Positions 32,150 through 33,355 of a stretch of DNA of 64,000 nucleotides are shown one piece after another. The translations under genes were made by a program, and so were the position numbers. The first letter of the stretch is position 1, and the number at the start of each line of letters is the position of its first letter. The notes under the pieces were generated by a model. It made no database searches, had not been told where the DNA came from, and saw only the letters and a program-made list of their open reading frames with translations. The stretch is from Saccopteryx bilineata (Eukaryota; Chordata; Mammalia; Chiroptera; Emballonuridae): NCBI RefSeq assembly GCF_036850765.1, contig NC_089495.1, positions 66,998,410 through 67,062,409 on the forward strand, in the 5' to 3' direction.

Positions 32150-33093
32150 TTAGTGACCACCAAGCTGGCTGTTGGAGGACAGCAAGCTGCCAAAGGCATG
32201 CTGGGAGCAGGTGGGGCACTGCCAGAAGTTTTTGGTGCCCACACGCCCACTGGCACTCCTGCTGTGGGGTGAGTGCTGGTGGAAGTCACGGTAGTTCTTG
32301 GTGAGCAGTGTGTAGAGGAAGAGGTTGATGCAGCTGTTGAGGTAGGTGAGGCAAGTGGTCAGGTTGTTGATGATGTGTGAGCAGCAGCTGCTATATCTAG
32401 AAAGGCATGAAGCATGCCCAAAAGAGTAGTACAATGCCCAGGATGAGGTGCAGCACTCTGGGGTTGGGCAGCTGCCGTGTCTGTGGGAAGGAGGCCTGCT
32501 GCGACAGTCAGTAGGTTCAGGCCAGGTGCATGTAGAGCAGCCCGATGACCACGCCAGGCCCCACAATGCTGGTCTCAAAGAGTAGTGTCAGGTAGGCATG
32601 GTAGTTGCTCTGGCCCCCAGGCCGGCAGGCAGAGGCTCTTGTGTTCCTTGTGGACCAGTCGGATATCCAGCAAGTGGGTGAAGATGCTGGCATGCACGGT
32701 CAGAAATTCCAAGCTGAGGACGACATGGCAACGAATGTCTCCAAGTGCCACTCCTTGTGATGTAGGTGGTGACAATGAAAGGGATGCTGAGCAGGTAGAG
32801 CAGGTCATCCAGCACCAGGTTGACAACATAGATGTACATGGAGGCTGAGGTTTGCAGGAAATGGTACACAACTATCAGCGTATACACGTTGCCCACCCCA
32901 CTCACCACGCCTATGACCAAGAGTACTGTTCCAATGGCACCCATGGCCACCAGGTCCTGCAGGGGGCTGAGTTCTGTCAGGCTGGCTCACGAGCTGTTGA
33001 GGGATCCATTGGGGTAGCTGGATGGTTTGGACACAGAGCTGCCTGTCATAGCTAGCACAGGAACCTGCTTGCAGGCTCTGGGCTCAGGGCCAT
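32150..33093 (-). pseudogene. UTS2R: Urotensin II receptor (UTS2R)-like pseudogene inside the provirus
   Basis: UTS2R is a rhodopsin-family receptor for urotensin II, single-exon in human. This copy runs from an ATG at 33,093 (MALSPEP...) to a stop at 32,150. Recognisable parts in order are TM1 (GTVLLVIGVVSGVGN), TM2 (YVVNLVLDDLLYLLSIPFI), early TM3 (EFLTVHASIFT), extracellular loop 2 (KSLCLPAWGPE), TM5-TM6 (for example GIVLLFWACF), TM7 (NNLTTCLTYLNSCINLFLY) and the TM7-tail junction (LLTKNYRDF). About 45 residues from the end of TM3 through TM4 are missing, including the E/DRY region. Several frameshifts and in-frame stops (two around TM5-TM6) break the frame. It shares the provirus orientation and lies between integrase and the polypurine tract. 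About 260 bp of GC-richer sequence upstream (33,094-33,355) may be its 5' UTR. No poly-A tail or flanking duplication is visible. The identification comes from memory of the human protein and is confident at family level. Confidence 0.88.
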
Positions 33094-33355
33094 CTCTGCT
33101 GCCTCACGCTAGACTTGAGGCTGGAATGTGCTGCAACAGGGGCATCTGTGGGTGACAAGCTTGTCCTTGGTCACTGCACAGCAAGTCGAGCTCCTGTGAC
33201 CATACTTCTGCAACAGCTTCGCCTTGCTCTGTACTAAGCAAACAAAAGAGGGCTGGCCCCGCGCCTGCACTGGATGGAAGGAAAGACAGTATCCAATGGA
33301 CCACAGTAATGTCGGCACTGGAGTGGCAAGAGGGGGTGCACCTCGCCCTAAGGAG

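What the first reader, a model, noticed from the sequence alone, without database searches (positions are those of the whole stretch)
32150..33355. Host urotensin II receptor (UTS2R) copy occupying the env position of an endogenous retrovirus
Between integrase and the polypurine tract, where a gammaretrovirus carries env, there is instead a minus-strand UTS2R-like sequence in the same orientation as the provirus. It runs from its own ATG to a stop and may include a GC-rich 5' UTR. That is the layout of a retrovirus that captured a cellular gene, as acute transforming retroviruses do. GPCR capture is well known in herpes- and poxviruses, but I know of no described case in an endogenous retrovirus. 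Seen: the receptor motifs, the flanking integrase, the polypurine tract and the LTRs. Known: human UTS2R is single-exon, so a retrocopy and a transduction look alike. Inference: capture rather than later insertion.
Basis: partly seen in the sequence, partly recalled or inferred. Interest (0 to 1): 0.87.

Follow-up and report, generated by a model that had tools for sequence, protein, structure and literature searches.

The report
Retroviral family carrying a stolen receptor gene
An ancient retrovirus-like element copied the spliced messenger RNA of its mammal host's urotensin II receptor gene into its own integrase gene and then spread it to dozens of places in the genome, leaving a step-by-step fossil record of how such elements steal host genes; the receptor copies examined are now broken.

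Summary
Largely confirmed: 33331-32164 (-) is UTS2R sequence inside an LTR-bounded, MLV-like class I provirus, same strand. The genome also holds the native gene and many receptor-bearing proviral loci (30 examined, 9 further hits not fetched). None of the 30 holds the 3,952-nt native intron at the exon 1/exon 2 joint, and surviving viral joints are shared. Corrections: the receptor sits inside integrase, not in the env position; eight of eight fetched receptor-free relatives keep the integrase segment it replaced, and none shows an env-sized gap before the LTR. The window's frame is broken (5 stops, 5 frameshifts) and its terminal stop is viral. New: three copies keep a first form (exon 1, exon 2, 217 bp more host sequence, about 43 nt of integrase replaced, microhomology at both joints); seven show that form minus a roughly 280-nt GT-AG stretch joining a donor in UTS2R to an acceptor in integrase. 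17 of 26 scoreable copies have a stop at receptor codon 278. Best read as template-switch transduction of a host mRNA, then spread in trans as a passenger.

The parts
38738..39446 (-). 5' LTR of the provirus (TG...CA)
   Evidence: Aligned to 3' LTR, 701 sites, 47 transitions + 26 transversions
38718..38737 (-). Primer-binding-site-like sequence, resembling a tRNA-Pro site (label recalled)
   Evidence: Directly after the LTR
36920..37333 (-). Remnant of gag matrix
   Evidence: Pfam Gag_MA E 1.4e-13
33332..33807 (-). Integrase remnant ending at ..GCACCCCC; shares the 5' joint with other receptor-bearing loci. Its own short pieces gave no Pfam integrase match; identified by alignment to relatives
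   Evidence: receptor-free relative L036 reads on through the site in one open frame with MLVIN_C 3.6e-14 and a sub-threshold rve match, E 0.001
33166..33331 (-). Captured UTS2R exon 1 (5' UTR), shortened here by an internal deletion
   Evidence: Alignment to native exon 1, C6:128653012-128653314
33165..33166 (-). Exon 1/exon 2 joint: the 3,952-nt native intron is exactly absent
   Evidence: Native GGTGACCGAG|GTGAGCGC ... TTTTCCTGCAG|GACAAGC; window GTGACCAAG|GACAAGC
32164..33165 (-). Captured UTS2R exon 2, ATG at 33093-33091; frame broken; 132-bp deletion between 32676 and 32672
31769..32163 (-). Post-integrase viral sequence, joined by deletion (GCCAGC microhomology) to receptor codon ~367; integrase C-terminal domain lost in this copy
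31758..31768 (-). Polypurine-like tract
30735..31757 (-). 3' LTR, interrupted by a repeat of about 300 bp (about 30925-31225)

Best explanation
An MLV-like (class I) endogenous retroviral lineage whose close relatives have no env acquired the host's spliced UTS2R mRNA during reverse transcription. The enzyme switched template at short matching C/T-rich stretches into and out of the mRNA inside the integrase gene, replacing about 43 nt of integrase with exon 1, exon 2 and 217 nt of further 3' host sequence. The chimera has a split integrase and so must have been copied and integrated in trans by intact relatives. Its RNA was later spliced once, from a donor just after the receptor's stop codon to an acceptor-like site in integrase (about 280 nt lost), and the spliced RNA was itself reverse transcribed and amplified. 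Further subfamilies, including the window's, arose by deletions, several at microhomology. Most scoreable copies share a premature stop (codon 278), so during most of the spread the receptor was a passenger. Shown: native gene, intron loss, joints, parental integrase segment, unspliced and spliced forms. Inferred: template switching during reverse transcription, single origin, mobilisation in trans, passenger status, order of events.
For: Multicopy: one search scored 40 of 59 first-look candidate loci; one is the native gene, one an isolated fragment (L029), 38 remain including the window; 29 of the 38 were fetched and have flanks of this viral family, 9 were not fetched; L048 makes 30 examined. 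Native UTS2R: open frame, human 9jfk E 7.6e-165. Intron: 25 of 30 copies align contiguously across exon 1/exon 2; of the other five, L028 reads across the joint without intron and L039, L040, L041, L048 lack it. 5' joint: 23 of 30 by script (three of them, L013, L019, L021, aligning only from transcript nt 33), plus L011 and the window by direct reading. Parental site: 8 of 8 fetched receptor-free relatives hold the replaced integrase segment, 6 without interruption; L036 reads through it in one open frame. First form: L013, L047 and L048 carry 217 bp past the exon 2 'donor', then integrase from nt 44 of the lost segment. Spliced form: 7 copies join at the base before GTGGGTG and the base after CTTCCTTAAG. 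L013 also keeps a longer integrase stretch seen in receptor-free relatives. Pol-side tree: receptor-free clade (95), then L013 (99), then L047 (82); post-side tree: seven receptor-free sequences, then L048 (96). Codon 278 is TGG, TGT and TGG in the three unspliced copies but TAG/TAA in 17 of 26 scoreable copies.
Against: The GT-AG step could in principle be a deletion sharing only AG; no RNA data were available. In the post-side tree one receptor-free relative, L032, groups with receptor copies L022/L028 (77), L013 groups with spliced L011 and L020 (97, 95), and L047 lies away from the receptor-free group; internal support is low in all three trees, so recombination between copies blurs the order. 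Codon 278 TGG also occurs in L020, L024 and L041, which are not of the unspliced form. Nine of the 38 loci were not fetched. No target-site duplication could be read at the window's LTR edges. Near-fixed differences between the native gene and the copies (7 synonymous, 4 nonsynonymous) cannot show whether the receptor was ever under selection in the element, because the native branch is included.
Confidence: 0.88

Rival explanations
1. A LINE-1-made processed UTS2R pseudogene landed in one provirus and the composite was then amplified as a provirus.
For: Intron removal and sense orientation are also expected of an L1 retrocopy.
Against: No A-run at the 3' joint of the three unspliced copies (an A-rich repeat in L047 lies further downstream); the joint lies at a C/T-rich match between host and integrase; about 43 nt of integrase are missing; both ends show microhomology.
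Confidence: 0.05
2. The spliced 3' joint is the original capture joint (a provirus lying downstream of UTS2R, exon 2 spliced into integrase), and L013, L047 and L048 gained the 217 bp later.
For: The joint of seven copies is exactly donor-to-acceptor; this was my own first model (note).
Against: Three copies on three chromosomes share the same 217-bp end point and the same integrase resumption point; a later gain would need host and viral pieces added together; they sit nearest the receptor-free relatives in one or other viral-flank tree, though not in both.
Confidence: 0.07
3. The window alone holds a receptor pseudogene that inserted by chance into an old provirus.
For: The window copy is broken and internally deleted.
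Against: The same joints recur at loci on many chromosomes.
Confidence: 0.01

Closest known systems
Acute transforming (transducing) retroviruses carrying v-onc genes (recalled)
   Same: Intronless host cDNA on the viral strand between LTRs; viral gene sequence replaced; presumably helper-dependent
   Different: The cargo is a G protein-coupled receptor, the lineage is germ-line and without env, the copies are broken, nothing points to transformation
LTR-retrotransposon-mediated retroposition (template switching between element RNA and cellular mRNA), as described in PMC5408686 section 2.2 (passages seen)
   Same: mRNA-derived, microsimilarity at switch points, element sequence on both sides
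   Different: Here the chimera kept LTRs and amplified to dozens of copies, with receptor-free relatives, first form, spliced form and deleted forms all preserved
Viral G protein-coupled receptors of herpes- and poxviruses (recalled)
   Same: A host receptor gene of this superfamily taken up by a virus-derived genome
   Different: Retroelement rather than large DNA virus; no intact frame in the 30 copies examined
Env-less, non-autonomous ERVs such as VL30 (recalled)
   Same: Defective LTR elements spread in trans
   Different: Carries a captured host coding exon

Membership tests
Retroviral transduction of a host gene | Host sequence lacks introns | tested here: met
   3,952-nt intron absent at the joint in 25 of 30 copies by script and in L028 by reading; the other 4 lack the joint
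Retroviral transduction of a host gene | Same host/virus joints in independent proviral loci | tested here: met
   23 of 30 by script for the 5' joint; 10 of 30 keep the 3' side (7 spliced, 3 unspliced)
Retroviral transduction of a host gene | Viral coding sequence replaced, element defective | tested here: met
   About 43 nt of integrase missing in the first form, about 108 in the spliced form; integrase split
Acute transforming retrovirus | Captured gene open and expressed | tested here: not met
   30 of 30 copies carry a stop or frameshift against the native CDS; expression not testable here
Acute transforming retrovirus | Parent is a replication-competent virus with env | tested here: not met
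   Closest receptor-free relatives: 8 of 8 contiguous from integrase C-terminus to L016 nt 5640; 7 of 8 then reach the LTR position within the 1.2 kb fetched, the eighth (L052) has an 820-bp unidentified insert and stops short of it. More distant relatives not examined
LTR-mediated retroposition | Microsimilarity at template-switch points | tested here: met
   5' CC(C/T)CCT, 3' CCTCC
L1 processed pseudogene | Poly-A tail and target-site duplication | tested here: not met
   Joints read in L013, L047, L048
Class I (MLV-like) ERV | Gammaretrovirus-type gag and integrase domains | tested here: met
   Gag_MA 1.4e-13; MLVIN_C 8.6e-19 in L016 and 3.6e-14 in L036
UTS2R orthologue (insert source) | Best match to human UTS2R above other rhodopsin-family receptors | tested here: met
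   9jfk 7.6e-165 versus 2.9e-43 for the next receptor in the PDB; synteny not tested

The most novel reading that the evidence does not exclude
The first captured form encoded a working urotensin II receptor that was expressed from the element, giving an endogenous retrovirus with a functional host-derived G protein-coupled receptor before the frame was lost in later amplification.
Probability: 0.15. Interest if true: 0.92.

Novelty: new variant of a known kind. Interest (0 to 1): 0.76.

Why it matters
How retroelements capture host genes is mostly inferred from finished oncogenic viruses (recalled). Here one genome keeps the donor gene, the parental integrase, a first chimera, a re-spliced derivative and later deletion forms, so each step can be read. 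It also shows a receptor coding exon multiplied dozens of times by an env-less lineage, and suggests that a captured splice donor can reshape the element. Nine literature searches in an open-licence library listed nothing that I recognised as a G protein-coupled receptor or UTS2R in an endogenous retrovirus; I saw listings only, apart from passages of one paper.

Tried and rejected
Rejected: (1) Single-copy insertion, by copy number and joints. (2) My own early model that exon 2 was spliced into integrase at the moment of capture (note): L013, L047 and L048 show an unspliced form. (3) L028, where LTR sequence directly abuts the start of exon 2, looked at first like a spliced proviral RNA; the last bases of exon 1 are still present, so a plain deletion explains it. 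(4) C3:303188 (L029) as the native gene: it is a degraded fragment starting at transcript nt 547, the same point as L048. (5) Twelve internal deletions of the receptor tested for GT-AG ends: none had them; several have evident microhomology. (6) Selection on the captured frame: not separable from change on the native branch. Private changes in 20 copies fall over codon positions as 116, 124 and 155, near neutral decay with a mild third-position excess. Pfam scans of short window integrase pieces gave no retroviral match; receptor ORFs other than 32588-32950 gave none to 7tm_1.

Tool trouble: searches did not complete. I repeated the same requests until the protein search and the post-integrase search were answered; the exon 1 search never was, and I answered it from the fetched locus L030 instead. 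One search failed on a file path and was rerun. I lowered the main confidence from 0.90 to 0.88 because the check showed that the post-side tree is less supportive than I had first written.

Full report
What is there. The window is part of a 2.61-Gb genome (G000:C6:66998410-67062409); short repeats nearby look bat-type to me (recalled, not tested). On the minus strand lies a provirus with LTRs at 39446-38738 and 31757-30735 (K2P 0.113 over 701 sites), a PBS-like site, a gag matrix remnant (Gag_MA 1.4e-13), integrase remnants, UTS2R sequence and a polypurine-like tract. With a neutral rate of 2.2-2.7e-9 per site per year (recalled), the LTR divergence would put this insertion at about 21-26 million years; this is only a rough guide.

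The insert is UTS2R. ORF 32588-32950 matches human UTS2R best in the PDB (1.3e-19). The native gene is at C6:128.65 Mb (L030 and L014): exon 1 of 303 nt as far as it is shared with the copies, an intron of 3,952 nt with GT-AG ends, exon 2 of at least 1,243 nt, and an open frame that matches human UTS2R at 7.6e-165. Whether the CAG|GTGGGTG at the end of the shared part of exon 2 is used as a donor by the native gene is not known.

It is multicopy. A DNA search with the insert scored 40 of 59 first-look candidate loci. One is the native gene, one an isolated fragment (L029), and 38 remain including the window. I examined 29 of these 38 plus L048 (found), 30 in all; 9 were not fetched and are proviral only by their pattern of matches. 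All 30 have sequence of this viral family on at least one side. 23 of 30 show the same 5' joint by script (in L013, L019 and L021 the alignment starts only at transcript nt 33), and L011 and the window do by direct reading; L028, L039, L040, L041 and L048 do not keep it. 25 of 30 align without a break across exon 1/exon 2; L028 reads across the joint without intron; L039, L040, L041 and L048 lack it. Matches to native intron and flank elsewhere in the loci look like shared repeats, since two receptor-free loci show such matches too.

Where in the virus. A search with the integrase C-terminus and post-integrase stretch of L016 scored 40 of 2,085 first-look candidates; 12 are receptor loci and 28 lie where searches gave no receptor hit. 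I fetched 8 of the 28. All 8 hold the integrase segment that receptor copies lack; in 6 it is uninterrupted, in L031 and L033 unrelated inserts lie in it. L036 reads through the site in one natural open frame of 261 aa with MLVIN_C and a sub-threshold rve match. The receptor therefore sits inside integrase. In all 8 the match runs contiguously to L016 nt 5640. A further 1.2 kb fetched for each shows that 7 of 8 reach the LTR position (L016 about nt 5982) within that stretch; L052 has an unidentified 820-bp insert and reaches only nt 5867. None shows an env-sized gap, so env was most likely gone before capture, at least in this branch; more distant relatives were not examined.

The joints. The 5' joint is virus ..GCACCCCC joined to host TCTCGCCCCTCC.., with a C/T match to native ACCTCCTCTC. 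The 3' joint has two forms among the 10 of 30 copies that keep it. In L013, L047 and L048 host sequence runs 217 bp beyond the CAG|GTGGGTG, then enters integrase at nt 44 of the lost segment (108 nt in L036) with CCTCC in common. In seven copies (L009, L010, L011, L016, L019, L020, L021) the same arrangement lacks about 280 nt that begin GTGGGTG and end CTCCTTCCTTAAG. The donor lies in host and the acceptor in viral sequence, so the simplest reading is that the chimeric RNA was spliced and the product reverse transcribed and amplified.

Order of events. L013 keeps a longer form of an integrase stretch that is present in receptor-free relatives (seven of eight in full, L032 shortened) but shortened in the other receptor copies seen, unspliced L047 among them; L048 lacks the region. 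That gives a nested series: capture, then this shortening, then splicing. In the pol-side tree four receptor-free sequences form a clade (95) next to L013 (99), then L047 (82). In the post-side tree seven of eight receptor-free sequences group with L048 next (96); but there L013 groups with spliced L011 and L020 (97, 95), L047 lies elsewhere, and L032 groups with L022/L028 (77). Recombination could explain this; it weakens the trees as evidence. The receptor tree of 20 copies is star-like with weak internal support. Further subfamilies arose by deletions, several with evident microhomology (GCCAGC at receptor codon ~367, the window's type; TACATCACC near codon 113); none of twelve tested internal deletions has GT-AG ends.

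State of the receptor. All 30 copies have at least one stop or frameshift against the native CDS. Codon 278 is TAG or TAA in 17 of 26 scoreable copies and not a stop in the three unspliced copies (TGG, TGT, TGG); TGG also occurs in L020, L024 and L041, AAG in L023 and L026, CAG in L043. Near-fixed differences from the native gene (shared by at least 80% of covering copies) are few: 16 of 394 UTR sites, and 7 synonymous plus 4 nonsynonymous in the coding part. They include change on the native branch, so early function is neither shown nor excluded. Private changes in 20 copies are spread over codon positions as 116, 124, 155, near neutral with a mild third-position excess.

Mechanism and standing. 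Intron loss means an RNA intermediate; microhomology, replaced integrase and absence of poly-A point to template switching during retroviral reverse transcription, as in the LTR-mediated model described in PMC5408686 section 2.2 (passages seen). With integrase split, spread must have depended on enzymes from intact relatives (inference). It works like retroviral transduction of a host gene; it is not shown to be an acute transforming virus. Literature searches (listings only apart from that paper) listed no earlier report of this capture that I recognised, within an open-licence library.

Noticed in passing
L032:1-492 (reverse-complemented orientation): An open 164-aa frame resembling a gammaretroviral transmembrane envelope protein lies upstream of a receptor-free element, probably the tail of another provirus (resemblance recalled).
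   Followed up: no
L029 (C3:303188 kb) and L048 (C3:303399 kb): Both start at receptor transcript nt 547 and lie about 211 kb apart; L029 has no recognised viral flank. They may share a truncation or a segmental duplication.
   Followed up: partly
L023 (C2:251.77 Mb) and L026 (C34:69 kb): Closely related copies (100 support), one on a small 295-kb contig: possibly an assembly duplicate or alternative haplotype.
   Followed up: no
L019 and L021 (C13, about 370 kb apart): Sister copies with 100 support in all three trees, suggesting segmental duplication rather than separate insertions.
   Followed up: no
window 30925-31225: A repeat of about 300 bp interrupts the 3' LTR; a similar piece occurs in L013 and L022.
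   Followed up: no
L011:2662-3462: An LTR-like stretch of the same family lies within the integrase region of this receptor copy, apparently a nested solo LTR.
   Followed up: no
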